NCBI GenBank assembly: GCA_015493405.1
Contig: WGDF01000186.1
Coordinates: 1 to 17,637, forward strand
DNA from: Flavobacteriaceae bacterium
GTDB lineage: Bacteria; Bacteroidota; Bacteroidia; Flavobacteriales; Flavobacteriaceae
Reading direction: 5' to 3'
Length of the DNA stretch: 17,637 nucleotides
In this document: piece by piece, positions 3,485 to 17,637 of the stretch
Numbering within the stretch: the first letter of the stretch is position 1
Layout: the number at the start of each line of letters is the position of its first letter
Position numbers and translations under genes: made by a program
The notes under the pieces: model-generated
Database searches by the model: none
Told to the model about the DNA's origin: nothing
The model's input: only the letters and a program-made list of their open reading frames with translations

Positions 3485-4312
3485 TTATTTCTGAACTGAT
3501 TTTATAAATCTTAAACCTGTCCAATTATTTTTTACCATTTCACTTTCAAATACCATACCGCAATCTTCGGCAACTTCTCGAATCAAAGGAATATCCTCGG
3601 TATAAAAACCACTTAAAACCAAATCTCCACCGTCTTTTATATTTTGAACGTATGCCGGAATATCTCGACTTAAAATATTTCGATTGATATTGGCCAAAAA
3701 TATATCAACAGCCGGCAATTGCTTAAGGGTATCAGCTGCGCCATAATAAGCCTTTATCCGGTGCATTTGATTATTTTCAAAATTTTCAAGCATATTTTCA
3801 TAGGCCCAACGGTCGTTATCAACAGCATAAATTTCATGCGCACCCAGCTGTTCCGATAAAATAGACAAAACGCCAGTTCCCGAACCCATATCAATGACTG
3901 ATTTGTTTTTAAAATCCATAGCCAACATATGTCGAATCATCAAGTAAGTCGTTTCGTGATGACCGGTTCCAAAACTCATTTTAGGATCAATGGTAATGAC
4001 AAATGGATAATCCTTTTTAGGATGGAATGATGTCTTGATATAAATTTGATCCGCAATGATTAAAGGTTTGATTTGAGCCTCCCAGCTTTTGTTCCAATTT
4101 TCCTCTTTGACTATTTTTTCCTCATAATGATAAGAAATCAACAACCCGTGCAATATGCTTTTGGGTTTGAGTGCTTGATTGGTATAGGCCAAAAAACCAT
4201 CAGCTGTCTCCACAAAACCTTCAAAGCCGGCTTGTGCCAATAAAGCAATGAAAATATCACGATTGCTTTCGGGTTGTTCCAAGTGAAAATTATATTCTTT
4301 ATAATCAGCCAT
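3485..4312 (-). CDS. prmA: Ribosomal protein L11 methyltransferase
   Basis: PrmA is a cytoplasmic SAM-dependent methyltransferase that trimethylates amino groups of ribosomal protein L11. At 275 residues it is slightly shorter than the E. coli enzyme (about 293). The N-terminal substrate-recognition part covers about residues 1-90. The Rossmann-type methyltransferase domain follows, with FGTGHHETTYLM, motif I VIDMGSGTGVLSI, the acidic loop AVDND, and LANINRNIL in place of the family's NIL(A)xxL active-site segment. The ATG at 4312 lies inside the end of the upstream membrane-protein gene, an 8-base overlap that points to translational coupling. A real start further upstream is unlikely because the N-terminus MADYKEYNFHL fits Bacteroidota PrmA. 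Confidence 0.95.
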   Translation of the reverse strand: MADYKEYNFHLEQPESNRDIFIALLAQAGFEGFVETADGFLAYTNQALKPKSILHGLLISYHYEEKIVKEENWNKSWEAQIKPLIIADQIYIKTSFHPKKDYPFVITIDPKMSFGTGHHETTYLMIRHMLAMDFKNKSVIDMGSGTGVLSILSEQLGAHEIYAVDNDRWAYENMLENFENNQMHRIKAYYGAADTLKQLPAVDIFLANINRNILSRDIPAYVQNIKDGGDLVLSGFYTEDIPLIREVAEDCGMVFESEMVKNNWTGLRFIKSVQK

Positions 4313-5510
4313 GCTGCTTGTTTTTAAAGAAAGTTAAAGACCAAATACCGATGACCATCCAAAAAGTAAAGATAAATAACAGCCAATTGAATAAATCAGA
4401 TGTTACCCCAACTTTAAACCAATTAAGTATGGCTCTGATAAAAATCAGCGTCTCCGTGATTAAAAAACCGCTGTAAAAAATATAAAAAAATGATTTTTTG
4501 AGTTTGATAAAATCCAATTCGTATGCCAAAATAAGTAAGAAAGGCGTGAAAATACCCAACATAATCAAGTGTAAATAGCCAATAATAAAATCACGGATAC
4601 CATAACTTAAATCGGCATAATACTGAAATGAACCCATAAATTGCAATACGGCTTTAAACATAAATGTCAATAAAACGACCAGCAATATTTTAAAAGAAAA
4701 ATCTGAAATAATATGTTGTAGATAATGATGATAGCGCTTTAAAATCAATAGTAGGACAAAAAATGCTGCAATTTCCGCTGATGCGCCAATCAGAGATAAA
4801 ACATTGAAAACAAGTCCGGGATGTGCCCAAAGCGTATTGGAAAAATAACCAAAAAAGACCGCTACCAACATTAATTGATACAGCCTGTTTACTTGGCTTT
4901 TTGGTAAAGTTATGTTGCGACGTTCCAACAAATATAGTGTTAAACCTATCAAAGCAAATAAAAACCAGCCATTGTATTGAAAATGCAGATAGTAAAAAAT
5001 GTCATATTTATAAAAATTGGATTGCTTTCCCAAAATTTTAATGATGGGGCCCAAAGACCAAGGACTGATACTCGATAAAATTTGCAACCAAATTCCGGCT
5101 CTAACAAAACGGTAAGTCGCCGGATATTTATCTGTATTGGTTTTATGTTTAAAAAAATAGAAATCAAATAAATAAGTCCCGATCAAAAAGAGAGATAAGA
5201 ATAATATGGAAAAGAATTTATATCCTTGAATGGGAAATGAAAAATACATCCCCACAATATTTAATATGGTAAACCAATAAATAAATTTGAAAAACTTTGT
5301 TTGAAGGCGATCCTTTAAAAATATATAGGACACAAAACTGATAAATGCGCCATGGAGCCATCCCAAAAAAGCGACATGCGAATGGGCATGCAAAAAATTA
5401 CTGTATTTAATATCCAAAGGAAAAACCGGCACCGTTCGCAAAATTAATCCTAATAAAGCGATGGCTGAAAAAAAATATAAAGCTATTTTAAATTGGGCTT
5501 TGGCATTCAT
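4305..5510 (-). CDS. Polytopic membrane protein with haem-copper-oxidase-like histidine pattern
   Basis: A very hydrophobic protein of 401 residues with about 11-12 predicted membrane helices. Histidines sit within or beside helices in HAHSHVAFLGWLHG (near residue 42), YLHFQYNGWF (near 176) and GYLHLIMLG (near 312). The H.H.H....GW, HF..NGW and LH...LG pattern resembles the helix-embedded haem and Cu ligands of subunit I of cbb3/NO-reductase-type haem-copper oxidases and related proteins. From sequence alone I cannot say whether it binds haem, and the protein is shorter than a true CcoN. I chose ATG at 5510 over the TTG at 5516 because it gives a normal start; both are in frame. Its end overlaps the prmA start by 8 bases. 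No other oxidase or reductase subunit is adjacent, so its role is unknown. Confidence 0.7.
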   Translation of the reverse strand: MNAKAQFKIALYFFSAIALLGLILRTVPVFPLDIKYSNFLHAHSHVAFLGWLHGAFISFVSYIFLKDRLQTKFFKFIYWFTILNIVGMYFSFPIQGYKFFSILFLSLFLIGTYLFDFYFFKHKTNTDKYPATYRFVRAGIWLQILSSISPWSLGPIIKILGKQSNFYKYDIFYYLHFQYNGWFLFALIGLTLYLLERRNITLPKSQVNRLYQLMLVAVFFGYFSNTLWAHPGLVFNVLSLIGASAEIAAFFVLLLILKRYHHYLQHIISDFSFKILLVVLLTFMFKAVLQFMGSFQYYADLSYGIRDFIIGYLHLIMLGIFTPFLLILAYELDFIKLKKSFFYIFYSGFLITETLIFIRAILNWFKVGVTSDLFNWLLFIFTFWMVIGIWSLTFFKNKQHG

Positions 5511-5536
5511 AAGCAAAAAATCTAAGGTAAAAATGT

Positions 5537-13328: not shown

Positions 13329-14501
13329 CTAACCACAACCGCCGGTTACTGCTTTTTTCTTATGTTTTGCAATCGGCGCTTTAGGCGCACCTACTTTCTT
13401 GGGAGCCGCAGCTACTACTTTATTATTGGTGCGTTTCTTACCTTCAACAACCGGATAGTCATTGATCAAAGCTGAAACATCAGGCATCCAATTATTCTTT
13501 TTCCAAATACTATACATAAATCCATTGGCGCCAAACATTAAATTATGTGCTTTATAACCCAACATATTTAAATAAGCGGTTGCATTTCCGGCTGTATGAC
13601 CGGTTTTACAATAAATCACAACCGGTTTATCCGCGGGAATATCGGTCAAACGTGCATTCAATCCTAAATCTTTACGAGGCGTAAATTGATGAGAGCCTTT
13701 GACATGAGCCGCATAATATTTTGGTTTTTGAATATAAAAGATGCTATAATAAGCGTTGATATCTTTTTTAATTGCCGGAAAAAATTCATCATCTTTCAAC
13801 AAAAATGAAGGACGAGATTGTTGCAGTAAAGCCTGTGCTCTTTCTTTGATTAATAAAGAAGGCAATTTTTGAGGCAACTTAGGCAATTTACTCAAATCGA
13901 TACCCTTATGCACTGCTTCTGTTTTCGGTTCAGTAGAAATGGCTTCTGTTTTATCGGTATCTTTGACTAGCATCTCAGGATAACGGTCTCCAAAACCTTT
14001 TTTCAAAATGCCCGAAAATTGGCTGTTCCAACTTGCCATACCGAAAAGCATCACATAAGTATTGTCAAAACCGGCATAACGGGTGATGCCCGTTACATAA
14101 GAAGCCATTTGTCCCGAATAGCAAATAAAAACAATCTTAGGATAAGCTGCGGCATGCTTTTTATGGCTTAGAAAATCCAAGACTTTATCTTTTGGCACAT
14201 TGTAAGCACCATTGATATGGCCTGCTTCATAAGCATCAGGATTTCTGATATCAATCAGAAGCCAGTTTTTACCATTTTCCAAAACTGCTGCTGCACTGAT
14301 TACAGGCGGAAATTGCTTGGTATTGATAAAATTACCATGTTCAGTATATATTTCTGCTAAAGTTTTAGGTTGTCCTTTCCGAATTAAATTTTCAAAATTG
14401 ACATCCTTTTTACCTACCATTGGACCATGATAGAGTACCGGCCCCTTCTGACAAGAAATTAGCCCGATAAGCAATATTGTTATTAAAAATAATTTTTTCA
14501 T
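13329..14501 (-). CDS. Rhodanese-like lipoprotein A: two rhodanese domains, both catalytic Cys present, GGCG tail
   Basis: A periplasm-facing lipoprotein of 390 residues. Lipobox LISC with Cys17. Two rhodanese domains: the first at about 65-165 (WLLIDIRNPDAYEAGHINGAYNVP and the active-site loop CYSGQMA, Cys127), the second at about 230-345 (CKTGHTAGNATAYLNMLGY, Cys298), joined by a charged, Lys/Thr/Glu-rich linker (about 165-215). Rhodaneses transfer sulfane sulfur through a Cys persulfide in this loop. After residue 355 a Lys/Ala/Pro-rich segment leads to KHKKKAVTGGCG with Cys389 next to last. That tail is shared with the two rhodanese-like proteins upstream. This is the last gene of a probable sulfur operon, 135 bases after gene B, convergent with the small lipoprotein. 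It is the only one of the three with intact catalytic sites. Confidence 0.88.
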   Translation of the reverse strand: MKKLFLITILLIGLISCQKGPVLYHGPMVGKKDVNFENLIRKGQPKTLAEIYTEHGNFINTKQFPPVISAAAVLENGKNWLLIDIRNPDAYEAGHINGAYNVPKDKVLDFLSHKKHAAAYPKIVFICYSGQMASYVTGITRYAGFDNTYVMLFGMASWNSQFSGILKKGFGDRYPEMLVKDTDKTEAISTEPKTEAVHKGIDLSKLPKLPQKLPSLLIKERAQALLQQSRPSFLLKDDEFFPAIKKDINAYYSIFYIQKPKYYAAHVKGSHQFTPRKDLGLNARLTDIPADKPVVIYCKTGHTAGNATAYLNMLGYKAHNLMFGANGFMYSIWKKNNWMPDVSALINDYPVVEGKKRTNNKVVAAAPKKVGAPKAPIAKHKKKAVTGGCG

Positions 14502-14636
14502 TTTTTTATAATTTGCGTGCCCCGATTCTCGACGGGGATGATATGATTATTTGATTATATAATTAATGATATATGATTTGAGATCCTGCTATTAGGTTCA
14601 CTACTCATATTTGGCATTAAGCACTTCCACTAATGA
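14502..14636. other. Spacer between rhodanese genes B and A
   Basis: A 135-base gap inside the presumed operon. It holds a small hairpin, CCCCG (14520-14524) with CGGGG (14533-14537), and an AT-rich, loosely repetitive tract of ATGATT-like words (about 14538-14580). No TAnnTTTG box is visible on the minus strand, so gene A is presumably read through from upstream. Confidence 0.45.
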
Positions 14637-15230
14637 CTAGCCACAGCCCCCGCTCACTTCTTTTTTCTTACGTTTGACTATGGGCTTTCCGGCAGCCGCA
14701 GGTTTCGCTTTTGGTGCAGCACTTCCTCCACCGGAACGACTCTTAATTTCGTTAATGGCTTCCTGAAAATCAACTAGAGGCTTTTCATCATCATACAAAC
14801 CGGAATAGATGCCGTAATTGTCCATGATTTTCGACTGAATATAATCATAGCCTCCTAAGGCCACATTAAAATTTCCTTTTTTAAAGTGTCCACTCATCAA
14901 AGCCATTAATCTAGGCGTTGAGGCATCTTCACCATATAAAATTAGGACATCATCCTTATTAATTTTTGAAAAATAATTCTTATTAAAGAAATTTTTCATC
15001 GGTACATTGATGGCACCCGGTAAATGACTGATGGCATATTTATGAGGCGTTCTGATATCAATAAATTGAACACCGTTAACCCCTTTGCTATATAATAAAT
15101 CAGCCAACTGTTCATTGCTAATGGCATTTGCCTTACAATTTTGATTGGTTTCTCCTTGACGTATCCCCATTTGATGGTTACATGAAGTCATCAATAAAAA
15201 ACCTGCTAATAGAATTAATATTTTTTTCAT
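14637..15230 (-). CDS. Rhodanese-like lipoprotein B: catalytic Cys replaced by Tyr, GGCG tail
   Basis: A lipoprotein of 197 residues with lipobox MTSC (Cys17) and one rhodanese-fold domain at about 38-135 (VQFIDIRTPHKYAISHLPGAINVP). At the active-site position, where gene A has Cys127, this protein reads LILYGEDAST, so Tyr99 occupies the Cys position and the CxxGxxA loop is lost. Classical sulfurtransferase chemistry in this domain is therefore unlikely. The remaining cysteines are Cys32 (near the lipid anchor) and Cys196 in the tail. A Gly/Ala/Pro-rich linker (about 166-182) leads to GKPIVKRKKKEVSGGCG, identical over 17 residues to the tail of gene C. It probably binds or presents a partner rather than catalysing transfer itself. 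Confidence 0.85.
   Translation of the reverse strand: MKKILILLAGFLLMTSCNHQMGIRQGETNQNCKANAISNEQLADLLYSKGVNGVQFIDIRTPHKYAISHLPGAINVPMKNFFNKNYFSKINKDDVLILYGEDASTPRLMALMSGHFKKGNFNVALGGYDYIQSKIMDNYGIYSGLYDDEKPLVDFQEAINEIKSRSGGGSAAPKAKPAAAGKPIVKRKKKEVSGGCG
14656..14681. repeat. 26-base exact direct repeat, copy 1 (tail coding)
   Basis: These 26 bases, coding for part of the Lys-rich tail of rhodanese B, are identical to 15401-15426 in rhodanese C. The flanking codons differ between the two genes. This suggests recent duplication, gene conversion or strong constraint on the tail-coding sequence. Confidence 0.85.
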
Positions 15231-15381
15231 TATTATTATATTTTGTCAGATATCAGATATCAGATGTCGGATATTTTCTCCGAAGACCGATAACCCTTAT
15301 CCGATGTTTTATTCTTTTTAAATTTTCTGACGTTTTGAGAAAACGCCTCTACTTACAACTTTATGAACTTTCAACTTAGGT
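15231..15381. other. Spacer between rhodanese genes C and B, with repeats
   Basis: A 151-base gap in the presumed operon. It holds four near-identical heptamers (15246-15273), an inverted repeat TCGGATA (15267-15273) with TATCCGA (15298-15304), and a small hairpin CGTTTT (15331-15336) with AAACG (15341-15345). Next to the hairpin is CGCCTCTACTT, also found in the 5537-5562 palindrome region. No promoter box was recognised. Confidence 0.5.
15246..15273. repeat. Heptamer tandem repeat (TCAGATA x4, imperfect)
   Basis: The units TCAGATA, TCAGATA, TCAGATG and TCGGATA follow each other without a break. Too short to be a CRISPR or a coding repeat; possibly a slippage-derived tract or a remnant of a degenerate intergenic repeat. 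Confidence 0.8.
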
Positions 15382-16014
15382 TTACCCGCATCCGCCACTG
15401 ACTTCTTTTTTCTTACGTTTGACTATCGGTTTGCCTGAGGCTTTAGGTTTAGATGTTGGTGCAGCACTGCTTACAGGTGTAGCCCCCGTAAAATAAATTT
15501 GTGCACCTTTTCTAAACAGATAAGCTTGCTTTGCTTCTGCCGTCAAATGATCATCAGCCGGTTTTTGCGGATTGATAATAGTTTTGTACCATTGATTTAA
15601 ACCGCCTTTCATCACTTTATTGCCTTTATAATCATAGCTACGCAAAGTTAACCAAGCTTGATCGGCTAAACTTGTCCCATTAGAAAATAATACCGTTGTA
15701 TAAACATCTTGATTAAAATAATCGACGTTTGCTTTATCTAATATTTTATCAAAAGGAATATTAATCGCACCATCTATAGTATATTTTGCGTATTCTTTAG
15801 GTGATCTGATATCGATTAATAACAAACTCGGATCACTTTCCATAATCATTTTAGCAACCGCATCCGTATTGACATAACGACCTTGTTTATTCACTTCATA
15901 CAACAGCTGCTTTGCCCCGATGATGTGTTTATGTGGCTTTACATTAGGTAAAAATATTGTTATAAAACTACCTACTAACAGTAAAGCCATTATTAAAATT
16001 TCTCTTCTTTTCAT
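15382..16014 (-). CDS. Rhodanese-like membrane-anchored protein C: catalytic Cys replaced by Ser, GGCG tail
   Basis: A protein of 210 residues with an N-terminal hydrophobic segment (about 6-23) and no lipobox, so it is probably held as a signal anchor with the rest outside the cytoplasm. One rhodanese-fold domain at about 45-145 (LLLIDIRSPKEYAKYTIDGAINIP). The catalytic loop reads VLFSNGTS, placing Ser111 where gene A has its catalytic Cys. The only cysteine in the whole protein is Cys209 in the C-terminal GKPIVKRKKKEVSGGCG, which follows a Ser/Ala/Pro-rich flexible stretch (about 178-193). It is the first rhodanese gene after the two DUF395 transporters, 74 bases downstream. If the tail Cys carries sulfur, this protein would be the simplest case; that is inference only. 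Confidence 0.85.
   Translation of the reverse strand: MKRREILIMALLLVGSFITIFLPNVKPHKHIIGAKQLLYEVNKQGRYVNTDAVAKMIMESDPSLLLIDIRSPKEYAKYTIDGAINIPFDKILDKANVDYFNQDVYTTVLFSNGTSLADQAWLTLRSYDYKGNKVMKGGLNQWYKTIINPQKPADDHLTAEAKQAYLFRKGAQIYFTGATPVSSAAPTSKPKASGKPIVKRKKKEVSGGCG
15401..15426. repeat. 26-base exact direct repeat, copy 2 (tail coding)
   Basis: Identical to 14656-14681, coding for the Lys-rich tail of rhodanese C. See copy 1. Confidence 0.85.
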
Positions 16015-16088: not shown

Positions 16089-16709
16089 TTAAATACCTAA
16101 ATCATCAACATCTTTTTGGTCCATCTTTCTTTTCCAGCTATCTTGCCATTTTTGAAAAACAATAAAGGTTATAATCGCAATAACCGTAAACAAAAAGATA
16201 AATAAACCTTCTTTCATACCAATCCAATCGGCGATGTTAACACGTCCCATTTTACCGGATTTACGCAAGGCCTCCCAAGCGGTATCATAAGTAAAAATGA
16301 AGCCGAAAATTCCAAGTAAAACACCGATTATAAAGACGATACCGTCAATTTTACCCGATGCTGCTGCAGATAGACTGGTGCCAGGGCAAAAACCGCCAAT
16401 AATAAAGCCTAATCCCATAATAGCCCCTCCAATTAAGGTCGGAATCCAAAATGTTTTAGGATAAAAAGTTAAAGTTATATCAATCCAGCCCATATAGTGA
16501 AGGAAAAATAAACCGATTAAAGCTGTTAAAGCAGCGGTGAAAAACACTTTAATAACAGTTGCATCATAGCCGTAAAAAATACCGGCTAATTTACGCGTGT
16601 TGGTAAATCCTGAAGCTTCTAATAAAAAGCCGAAACCTACACCGATTAAGGCGCCAATCAGAAGATTATATTGAGGATTTAGTAATAATTGTGGATATAA
16701 TGGTCCCAT
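16089..16709 (-). CDS. YeeE/YedE-family (DUF395) sulfur-compound transporter, half-size, second subunit
   Basis: An inner-membrane protein of 206 residues with about five to six helices. The hallmark GFGFLLEASGFTNTRKLAGIFYGYD (about residues 24-49) is the typical YeeE/YedE start. The central motif is IGGFCPGTSLSAAASGKIDG with Cys108, the only cysteine. Full-length relatives such as the thiosulfate transporter TsuA carry several such Cys-containing repeats in one chain; here two half-size proteins (this one and the next upstream gene) probably assemble into one transporter, as in the PmpA/PmpB pairs linked to BigR operons. Six bases separate its ATG from the upstream stop. The C-terminus is cytoplasmic, charged and rich in Lys/Asp. 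Transport of thiosulfate, polysulfide or another sulfane species is inferred, direction unknown. Confidence 0.88.
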   Translation of the reverse strand: MGPLYPQLLLNPQYNLLIGALIGVGFGFLLEASGFTNTRKLAGIFYGYDATVIKVFFTAALTALIGLFFLHYMGWIDITLTFYPKTFWIPTLIGGAIMGLGFIIGGFCPGTSLSAAASGKIDGIVFIIGVLLGIFGFIFTYDTAWEALRKSGKMGRVNIADWIGMKEGLFIFLFTVIAIITFIVFQKWQDSWKRKMDQKDVDDLGI

Positions 16710-16715
16710 AATTTA

Positions 16716-17243
16716 TTAATTTTTTTTGATCCATAAACGTTTGAAAAAATAGGCGAAGATAAAACCAAACCCGAAAATAGCGACCAAGCCGATATATCCC
16801 GATAAGGAATTAACTGCCATACCTGACAACACCAAACCAGAGGTGCAACCACGGCCAAGTTGTGTGCCTATACCCCACAAAATACCACCGGCTAAAGCCA
16901 AATATAAGCGTTTTTTGTTGGTTATATGAGGTGCCTTCCCGACCATAAATTTTAAACGACCGAAAATAGCAGCCGATATAATGGCTCCGAAAATAACCCC
17001 GAGCAATTCAAAAACCAACCAAGTTTGCATCGGCCCTTCTTCACCTGAAACGTGAGGGGCTACAAAACTGTTAGCTTTGGCATAAGCAGGTGAAACTTTA
17101 TCTATAATTCCAATGGCAACATCTCTGTAACCACCACTGGAACCTAAACCTTCTCCTGCAAAATAATATGCGATAATGATAAGAAGTCCCATTAAAAAAC
17201 CACCTACATATGCATTGATATATTTATTTTTATTTGTATTCAT
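16716..17243 (-). CDS. YeeE/YedE-family (DUF395) sulfur-compound transporter, half-size, first subunit
   Basis: An inner-membrane protein of 175 residues when read from ATG at 17243. An earlier in-frame ATG at 17288 would overlap the end of the upstream gene by 32 bases and adds MQVKYLIIHSKNLIE, which lacks family character; 17243 leaves a 13-base gap and gives MNTNKNKYINAYVGGFLMG, as expected. The DUF395 signature is LAGGILWGIGTQLGRGCTSG with Cys133 (the only cysteine), followed by GLVLSGMAVNSLSGYIGL. A periplasmic loop around residues 31-72 carries GSSGGYRD and PHVSGEEG. With the neighbouring half-size gene it should form the complete sulfur-compound channel. Confidence 0.87.
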   Translation of the reverse strand: MNTNKNKYINAYVGGFLMGLLIIIAYYFAGEGLGSSGGYRDVAIGIIDKVSPAYAKANSFVAPHVSGEEGPMQTWLVFELLGVIFGAIISAAIFGRLKFMVGKAPHITNKKRLYLALAGGILWGIGTQLGRGCTSGLVLSGMAVNSLSGYIGLVAIFGFGFIFAYFFKRLWIKKN

Positions 17244-17256
17244 TTCAATTAAATTT

Positions 17257-17637
17257 TTAGAATGGATAATCAGATATTTGACCTGCAACTACCATAATGA
17301 TTCGGAATAAAAAGCCGCCTATTAAGACTAATAAAGCCGGTAAAGCCGGGGGAATATGTTTGCCCTTCAATTCCATAGCTTCCAGAATAAAAGGTAATAC
17401 TAAACCAAAACCGACAAAAATAACCCAAAAGATAACTGTAAACTCACCCCCTAAAAATAGATGTGCAGCTTGCTTATAAGCTTCAGGCCCGGCTTGCATA
17501 CCCATAATCATATGGATAATGAAAAATATTTCGGTGGCAATCAAAGCCATATCTATGGTGGACATCAATTTACGTTCCTTTTTATTATTGCTCAACCACA
17601 TGACAAAAGCTGATCCTGTAGAAACCCCTGAGGTTAA
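17257..17637 (-). CDS. NrfD/PsrC-type membrane subunit, C-terminal part (5' end outside window)
   Basis: The frame runs without a stop to the right edge: codons before the ATG at 17601 read LTSGVSTGSAFV, typical NrfD sequence, so this ATG is internal and at least 127 residues of the C-terminal end are visible. Features are a helix around IDMALIATEIFFIIHMIMG, a polar segment (AGPEAYKQAAHLFLGGEF), a helix FWVIFVGFGLVLPFILEAM, then GKHIPPALPALLVLIGGFLFRIIMVVAGQ with a conserved Arg, all characteristic of NrfD/PsrC. These proteins are quinol-oxidising or quinone-reducing membrane anchors of polysulfide/thiosulfate/nitrite reductase complexes or of alternative complex III. The sulfur context favours a polysulfide or thiosulfate-type complex, but the catalytic subunits lie outside this window. 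It is 13 bases upstream of the first DUF395 gene. Confidence 0.85.
   Translation of the reverse strand, partial: LTSGVSTGSAFVMWLSNNKKERKLMSTIDMALIATEIFFIIHMIMGMQAGPEAYKQAAHLFLGGEFTVIFWVIFVGFGLVLPFILEAMELKGKHIPPALPALLVLIGGFLFRIIMVVAGQISDYPF

What the first reader, a model, noticed from the sequence alone, without database searches (positions are those of the whole stretch)
13329..16014. Three rhodanese-family proteins share a Lys-rich C-terminal tail ending in [ST]GGCG
Rhodanese proteins A, B and C end in KHKKKAVTGGCG, KRKKKEVSGGCG and KRKKKEVSGGCG. In B and C the last 17 residues are identical although the domains are otherwise divergent. Each tail follows a flexible Ala/Pro/Ser/Lys-rich linker, is at the extreme C-terminus and places a Cys next to last. 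A shared, conserved, cysteine-bearing tail on three exported proteins of one operon looks like a functional module: a swinging persulfide arm, a metal or partner docking peptide, or a sorting/processing signal. I do not recognise it as a named C-terminal sorting family.
Basis: partly seen in the sequence, partly recalled or inferred. Interest (0 to 1): 0.8.

Follow-up and report, generated by a model that had tools for sequence, protein, structure and literature searches.

The report
Cysteine-tipped tail serving a sulfur transporter
Three exported proteins in this bacterium end in the same flexible tail tipped with one cysteine, and in related bacteria that tail sits beside, or is fused to, a sulfur-transport membrane protein, so it is probably an arm that carries sulfur to or from the transporter; this has not been tested at the bench.

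Summary
Confirmed. A, B and C end in KHKKKAVTGGCG, KRKKKEVSGGCG and KRKKKEVSGGCG. In relatives the operon is PsrA-like, Fe-S, NrfD, YeeE/YedE halves Y1 and Y2, C, then B and A (70 of 81 sources intact). B and C lack the rhodanese catalytic cysteine; 114 of 120 listed C relatives have the tail, and in 109 of these 114 its cysteine is the only one. A keeps two catalytic cysteines and the tail. Tails within a locus are 90-95% identical between paralogues but 57-66% between loci, with many synonymous differences, so this is no recent duplication artefact. Of 40 regions picked by a Y2 profile, 39 hold a tailed protein next to or fused to Y2; one has a broken C gene. In 19, YedE half and inactive rhodanese are one protein ending in the tail; 17 of these lack PsrABC and have an octaheme-type cytochrome upstream. 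Best reading: a SoxY-like sulfur-carrier arm on an inactive rhodanese, dedicated to a split YeeE/YedE transporter. Sulfur loading and direction are inferred. Ten library searches showed no description of it.

The parts
13329..14501 (-). A: lipoprotein with two rhodanese domains, both with catalytic-type Cys, linker and C-terminal Cys tail
   Evidence: ORF; PF00581, two stretches; ICYSGQM, YCKTGHT loops
13332..13367 (-). A tail KHKKKAVTGGCG; the Cys codon is 13335-13337
14637..15230 (-). B: lipoprotein with one rhodanese domain lacking the catalytic Cys, linker and tail
   Evidence: (PF00581, E 1.6e-8)
14640..14675 (-). B tail KRKKKEVSGGCG; the Cys codon is 14643-14645
15382..16014 (-). C: membrane-anchored rhodanese domain lacking the catalytic Cys; the tail Cys is its only cysteine
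   Evidence: (PF00581, E 1.4e-12), (rhodanese fold; end disordered)
15385..15420 (-). C tail KRKKKEVSGGCG; the Cys codon is 15388-15390
16089..16709 (-). Y2: N-terminal-half-like YeeE/YedE protein (PmpB-like) with Cys108 in GGFCPGT; the half that is fused to a tailed rhodanese in other genomes
   Evidence: (PF04143 positions 4-160), (Cys motif in 77 of 77; fusions)
16716..17243 (-). Y1: C-terminal-half-like YeeE/YedE protein (PmpA-like) with Cys133 in GRGCTSG; ATG start chosen, the listed ORF begins at a TTG at 17288
   Evidence: PF04143 positions 175-306; Cys motif in 78 of 79
17257..17637 (-). N: C-terminal part of an NrfD/PsrC-type membrane subunit, cut by the contig end; PsrA- and PsrB-like genes lie upstream in relatives
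   Evidence: (PF03916)

Best explanation
The tail is a C-terminal cysteine arm that carries sulfur. It is mounted on exported rhodanese-fold proteins, of which B and C have lost their own catalytic cysteine, and it works with the split YeeE/YedE transporter Y1-Y2. Proposed cycle: sulfane sulfur arises or is consumed in the periplasm at an operon-encoded redox enzyme (PsrABC-type molybdoenzyme here; an octaheme-type cytochrome in most fused versions) or is mobilised by the catalytic rhodanese A; it is held on the tail cysteine as a persulfide or S-thiosulfonate; the disordered linker lets the cysteine reach the channel entrance, where sulfur passes to the conserved cysteines of Y2 (Cys108, equivalent by position to TsuA Cys91) and Y1 (Cys133, equivalent to TsuA Cys293). 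SHOWN by sequence: tail conservation, sole-cysteine status, missing catalytic cysteines, synteny, natural fusion, predicted disorder. INFERRED: sulfur loading, swinging, hand-over to Y1-Y2, residue equivalences, and direction (import is the default from TsuA/SoxT precedent; export is not excluded).
For: Sole cysteine: 109 of 114 tailed C homologues among 120 listed; of the best 120 fused homologues listed (6244 hits; the profile was built from five tailed fusions, so this set leans towards tails) all 120 have the tail Cys and 106 have no other Cys between residue 221 and the tail. Missing catalytic Cys: in C the only column with Cys in a majority is the tail (81 of 81 rows, one row being the B of L030), in B likewise (72 of 74); A keeps the two catalytic Cys in 37 and 36 of 39. 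Partner: a Y2 profile, blind to tails, gave 75 places in 66 of 395 genomes; of the 40 regions I read, 39 have a tailed protein next to or fused to Y2 and 1 has a broken C gene. 19 of the 40 are single-frame fusions; two were tested by Pfam and are Sulf_transp plus Rhodanese, and the 120 listed database fusions carry both domains. The module also occurs without PsrABC: 17 fusions have no PsrABC in the region and an 8-heme cytochrome upstream; the one cytochrome tested is TIGR04315, tetrathionate reductase family, 560.5 bits against a cut-off of 375. Channel cysteines: 78 of 79 Y1 and 77 of 77 Y2. Shared site: paralogue tails within a locus 90-95% identical against 57-66% for the same protein between loci, with synonymous codons differing at 35-44% of matched residues. 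Precedent: the SoxY GGCGG cysteine binds sulfur substrate (PMC6067878, passage); SoxY tails in this phylum read ..KVTIGGCGG; [quoted passage not shown] Flexibility: pLDDT of C is 45, 51 and 42 in the blocks 181-190, 191-200 and 201-210, and 80-95 over the domain.
Against: No biochemistry. TusA, the cytosolic partner of YeeE in known systems, exceeds its cut-off in only 3 of 11 carrier genomes (5 of 11 at E 0.001), so the far-side acceptor is unknown and import is unproven. AlphaFold gave low confidence for the YedE half of the fusion, so no docking of the tail on the channel was seen. The SoxT authors themselves call direct Cys-to-Cys transfer questionable because the channel cysteines are about 7 A apart. 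Tails are missing in 6 of 120 C homologues and 34 of 119 A homologues (14 of the 99 closest and all of the 20 most distant). The 80 loci are the best of 203, fetched by similarity to C. My 40 Y2 regions are about half of the 75 places, picked by hand to include split and fused forms. The neighbours of the Cys vary (EEEE before GGC in some lineages), so basic residues right next to it are not strictly needed.
Confidence: 0.7

Rival explanations
1. The arm serves the PsrABC-type molybdoenzyme: persulfide on the tail is a substrate or product carrier for the PsrA-like subunit, and YeeE/YedE is incidental.
For: A PsrA-like gene (best PDB match 2vpw, E 4.9e-177), Fe-S and NrfD genes precede Y1-Y2-C in 70 of 81 sources; a Psr operon with a secreted three-domain rhodanese is described in Desulfurivibrio (PMC12142623, passage).
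Against: The tail persists where no PsrABC gene was found in the region: 17 fused loci, four further Y2-C loci (L151, L152, L153, L155) and a Y1-Y2-C set in L136. The fusions seen join the tail to Y2.
Confidence: 0.17
2. Sulfane-sulfur sensor: the tail reports periplasmic sulfur through YeeE/YedE to a regulator, as proposed for SoxT1B, rather than carrying flux.
For: SoxT1B acts in signalling (PMC11582611, Discussion); a cluster that I read as Crp-like (cl7) occurs in 15 of 81 sources.
Against: Two or three tailed proteins per operon plus redox enzymes suggest flux; 66 of 81 sources show no cl7 gene, though loci are short.
Confidence: 0.07
3. Metal-binding or partner-docking peptide with no sulfur carried.
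For: Disordered, mostly basic, alike between paralogues within a locus.
Against: One Cys and no second conserved ligand; the Cys is kept while the rest of the tail varies between lineages.
Confidence: 0.05
4. Sorting or processing signal (GlyGly-CTERM-like), or a GG-CF-type precursor trimmed to a Gly-Gly end for thiocarboxylation, as recalled for QbsE.
For: Gly-Gly next to the C terminus; basic residues.
Against: No hydrophobic segment before the tail; the tail also ends Y2 fusions; Gly-Gly is not constant (EGC, MGC, DGC) while Cys is; the proteins are exported, away from ATP-dependent E1 enzymes.
Confidence: 0.04

Closest known systems
SoxY (PF13501), sulfur carrier of the Sox system
   Same: Extracytoplasmic carrier with the functional Cys in a Gly-rich C-terminal tail (GGCGG; here GGCG, GGC, EGC) and few other cysteines
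   Different: Scaffold is a rhodanese fold, not the SoxY domain; long disordered, mostly basic linker; tied to YeeE/YedE by operon or fusion; no SoxY match in the 16 carrier genomes
YeeE/YedE family: TsuA, SoxT, split PmpAB / YedE1E2
   Same: Y1 and Y2 match the C- and N-terminal halves of Sulf_transp and keep cysteines at the positions I equate with TsuA Cys293 and Cys91
   Different: Accompanied by, or fused to, an inactive rhodanese with a Cys arm; TusA partner over its cut-off in only 3 of 11 genomes
PsrABC / PhsABC polysulfide or thiosulfate reductase
   Same: PsrA-like subunit is a full-length homologue of PDB 2vpw (deposited as thiosulfate reductase; recalled as Thermus PsrA), with Fe-S and NrfD genes
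   Different: Operon adds split YeeE/YedE and tailed rhodaneses; substrate unknown
Rhodanese / periplasmic sulfurtransferases
   Same: Rhodanese fold by Pfam, AlphaFold and Foldseek; A has catalytic-type loops
   Different: B and C lack the catalytic Cys; the reactive Cys is on a flexible tail
DsrC/TusE (TIGR03342)
   Same: Sulfur carrier with next-to-last Cys on a C-terminal arm (function recalled; family match)
   Different: Unrelated family without signal peptide; a separate gene in 11 of the 81 sources

Membership tests
SoxY | SoxY domain PF13501 | tested here: not met
   only PF00581 on A, B, C; PF13501 in 0 of 16 carrier genomes (none of that call's controls rang); the same search rings in 47 of 395 genomes of the phylum, 45 over the cut-off
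SoxY | C-terminal GGCGG with sulfur-binding Cys | tested here: inconclusive
   Tail is GGCG, GGC or EGC; resembles SoxY tails; sulfur binding not testable here
SoxY | SoxZ partner and soxXAB genes | not tested
   Only SoxY was searched for in the genomes
Catalytic rhodanese sulfurtransferase | Rhodanese fold | tested here: met
   C model, Foldseek hits to rhodaneses with E down to 5.5e-6, probability 1.00
Catalytic rhodanese sulfurtransferase | Active-site Cys in the loop | tested here: not met
   B and C: no Cys in the loop. For A it is met: 37 and 36 of 39 rows
YeeE/YedE (Sulf_transp) for Y1, Y2 | PF04143 match above cut-off and conserved channel cysteines | tested here: met
   (63.1 bits Y1, 58.5 bits Y2, cut-off 27); TsuA residue numbers from PMC11582611 section 6
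PsrABC-type enzyme | PsrA-like catalytic subunit with Fe-S and NrfD subunits | tested here: met
   on relatives; in the window only the NrfD end is present. NCBIfam PhsA scores 453.7 bits, below its 694 cut-off, so it is not PhsA proper
C-terminal sorting signals (GlyGly-CTERM, PEP-CTERM and the like) | Transmembrane helix just before the C-terminal basic cluster (recalled) | tested here: not met
   the tail follows a disordered Ala/Pro/Ser/Lys linker
ThiS/QbsE-type thiocarboxylate carriers | Ubiquitin-like fold (recalled) | tested here: not met
   Rhodanese fold; exported

The most novel reading that the evidence does not exclude
A phylum-wide class of sulfur transporters with a built-in carrier arm: an inactive rhodanese tethered to, or fused with, one half of a split YeeE/YedE channel presents protein-bound sulfur on a flexible C-terminal cysteine directly to the channel cysteines, so that toxic sulfane sulfur crosses the membrane without being released. 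The same arm-channel unit is plugged into two unrelated redox enzymes, a polysulfide-reductase-type molybdoenzyme and an octaheme cytochrome.
Probability: 0.45. Interest if true: 0.88.

Novelty: new variant of a known kind. Interest (0 to 1): 0.76.

Why it matters
How external sulfur is presented to YeeE-type transporters is treated as open in the SoxT paper (PMC11582611, Discussion read). Here nature has joined a candidate carrier arm to the transporter in one chain, which makes the question testable with one protein pair and one point mutation. It also offers a marker (YedE half plus rhodanese plus terminal Gly-Cys) for sulfur metabolism in Bacteroidota and Ignavibacteria, where the names given by sources include rhodanese-related sulfurtransferase, YeeE/YedE thiosulfate transporter and hypothetical protein.

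Tried and rejected
Local duplication artefact: rejected; synonymous codons differ at 35-44% of matched tail positions within loci against 44-54% between loci. Recent gene conversion would give much lower values; old conversion events are not excluded.

Sorting signal, thiocarboxylate precursor and metal peptide: see rivals. SoxY homology: no SoxY domain; the similarity of tails looks convergent.

PsrA as the obligatory partner: first favoured from synteny, then dropped when fusions without PsrABC appeared. Import to TusA: weakened.

Structure of the fusion: YedE half pLDDT mostly below 50, so it said nothing about docking. Plasmid search: one record, 28% identity over half of C, not followed. 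Extension beyond the phylum was not settled: L076 and L083 are titled Candidatus Neomarinimicrobiota but may be misbinned.

Limits of my scripts: the simple gene caller missed Y2 and the true C of L030 (C ends GGCG), so one 'C' row is that locus's B; L052 was also misread near Y2; genes in GC-rich L165 and L156 were missed. as scripted reports 35 of 40; L139, L152 and L155 were picked wrongly there and show tails; L156 shows a frame ending ..IKVANEGC (not tested for a rhodanese domain) and L148 a broken C gene. Relatedness of loci was not corrected for in the pairing test.
Full report
CHECKING THE OBSERVATION. The three reading frames are as described, the tails are exact, and the 17 identical residues of B and C are exact. 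GGCG followed by a stop-like triplet occurs four times in the whole genome, three of them here; the fourth follows a stop by four residues.

ANATOMY. A (390 aa) is a lipoprotein with two rhodanese domains, each with a catalytic-type Cys loop; B (197 aa) is a lipoprotein and C (210 aa) has an N-terminal helix; both carry one rhodanese domain without the catalytic Cys. The C model shows a helix at 3-20, a confident domain and a low-confidence end, with 181-192 and 201-210 below pLDDT 50; the closest solved structures are rhodaneses. Upstream on the same strand lie two YeeE/YedE halves, Y2 (16089-16709) and Y1 (16716-17243), and the end of an NrfD gene where the contig stops.

CONSERVATION. Protein searches gave 119 relatives of A at E 1e-10 and 197 of C at E 1e-5, 120 of the latter listed. 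Tails are present in 85 of 119 A hits (85 of the closest 99, none of the 20 most distant) and in 114 of 120 listed C hits; in 109 of those 114 there is no other Cys. A scan of GTDB species genomes gave 80 loci, the best of 203 relatives, with titles naming Flavobacteriales, Saprospiraceae, Bacteroidales, Chlorobiota and Candidatus Neomarinimicrobiota among others. With the window these are 81 sources: 70 show PsrA-like, Fe-S, NrfD, Y1, Y2 and at least one rhodanese in that order; of the other 11, nine (window included) are cut within the operon by the end of the stored DNA, L030 was misread by my caller, and L052 is not resolved. The tail Cys column is filled in 81 of 81 C rows, 72 of 74 B rows and 35 of 39 A rows (one C row is really the B of L030). 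The four A rows without tails (L046, L067, L080, L088) and the second A-type genes beside them look like a distinct tail-less type. Rhodanese-cluster genes end in GC or GCx in 188 of 201 complete genes, other genes in 2 of 963. In a sample of 395 genomes of the phylum, 15 had a match to C at E 1e-15, six of them (window included) below E 1e-37 or close to it (weakest 1.2e-37).

COVARIATION OF THE TAILS. Within a locus, paralogue tails are 91% (B-C, 71 loci), 90% (A-C, 35) and 95% (A-B, 33) identical, while the 20 residues before are 34-40% identical; between loci the same protein's tails are 57-66% identical, and 2000 random pairings never reached the observed means. Relatedness of loci was not corrected for. 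Matched residues use different codons in 35-44% of cases within loci and 44-54% between loci. I read this as selection on the protein holding the tails of one cell alike, as expected if they visit the same site.

WHICH PARTNER. I searched 395 genomes of the phylum with a profile of Y2, which knows nothing of tails: 75 places in 66 genomes. I read 40 of these regions, picked to include split and fused forms. In 39, a protein with a mostly basic end closing in GC or GCx (one GLCS) is the next gene or part of the Y2 protein; in one (L148) the C gene is broken and the tail is encoded in a shifted frame. Five further Y2 places lie in regions fetched, all five with tails. In 19 of the 40, Y2 and C are one continuous frame of about 400 residues. 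Two fusions tested by Pfam show Sulf_transp then Rhodanese. The best 120 of 6244 database hits to the fused profile all end in a Gly-Cys tail, and in a 55-row alignment of them Cys107 of the channel half and Cys398 of the tail are invariant; that profile was built from tailed fusions. Of the 19 fusions, 17 have no PsrABC gene in the region and an 8-heme cytochrome upstream, L165 could not be read with my caller, and L158 is a PsrABC locus; in two of the 17 (L164, L168) Y1 was not recognised. The one cytochrome tested is TIGR04315, tetrathionate reductase family octaheme. Draconibacterium (L136) also has a Y1-Y2-C set with no PsrABC gene beside it. So the constant unit appears to be Y1-Y2-C with the tail, and the redox enzyme exchangeable. 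In nine carrier genomes with 107 rhodanese matches I read the ends at 29: two belong to this operon and have the tail; of the other 27, one has a tail-like end (L118, PGCE).

MECHANISM. The SoxY precedent is a Cys in a GGCGG end that binds sulfur substrate (PMC6067878, passage). The SoxT paper (PMC11582611, sections read) describes split PmpAB halves whose cysteines match TsuA Cys91 and Cys293, and calls transfer from the SoxY cysteine along channel cysteines conceivable, but doubts direct transfer because of spacing. Split YedE1E2 is reported as a zero-valent sulfur transporter (PMC10812762, title and passages). SoxY gave no match in 16 carrier genomes; the family rings in 47 of 395 genomes of the phylum, none of them one of the six clear carriers. 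I therefore propose that tailed B and C are carriers, A loads or unloads them, and Y1-Y2 takes or gives the sulfur. Direction is open: TusA exceeds its cut-off in only 3 of 11 genomes. DsrC/TusE-type genes occur in 11 of 81 sources, and L133 has ATP sulfurylase and an APS-reductase beta subunit near the operon, which points to energy metabolism with sulfur.

WHAT IS IN PRINT. Ten searches of the held library, passages of six papers (PMC11582611, PMC12142623, PMC6067878, PMC13047784, PMC10812762, PMC12998232) and two sections of the first showed no mention of the tail, of rhodanese-YedE fusions with a terminal Cys, or of this operon in Bacteroidota. I read none of these papers whole, and subscription papers are mostly not in that library.

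VERDICT. A real, widely conserved module; best read as a SoxY-like sulfur-carrier arm on an inactive rhodanese, dedicated to split YeeE/YedE transporters. Known parts in a new arrangement, with the chemistry still to be shown.

Noticed in passing
L159, L161-L164, L166-L177: A second operon type in the phylum: 8-heme cytochrome (TIGR04315 in L170), usually cytochrome b561-like and Y1 genes, and a YedE half fused to a tailed inactive rhodanese.
   Followed up: partly
   Followed up: partly
L045:378-689, L080:19103-19414 and nine more of the 81 sources: DsrC/TusE-like genes with a next-to-last Cys and, in some loci, DsrE-like genes close to the operon; candidates for the cytosolic side.
   Followed up: partly
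P0088 and P0221 (longest contigs both 8451 bases): An A without tail and without catalytic cysteines, and a C without tail and without any Cys; possibly the same contig, which would be a joint loss of all the thiol chemistry.
   Followed up: no
L061:1352-1870: A further small rhodanese-cluster protein with a GGC end (..ADADIGGC) upstream of the operon, without the basic stretch.
   Followed up: no
L046, L067, L080, L088, L135: Two consecutive tail-less two-domain-sized rhodaneses downstream of the tailed pair; A-like but of a distinct type.
   Followed up: no
window 4305-5516: A 403-residue ORF, by eye a membrane protein, with no Pfam match at E 1e-5.
   Followed up: no
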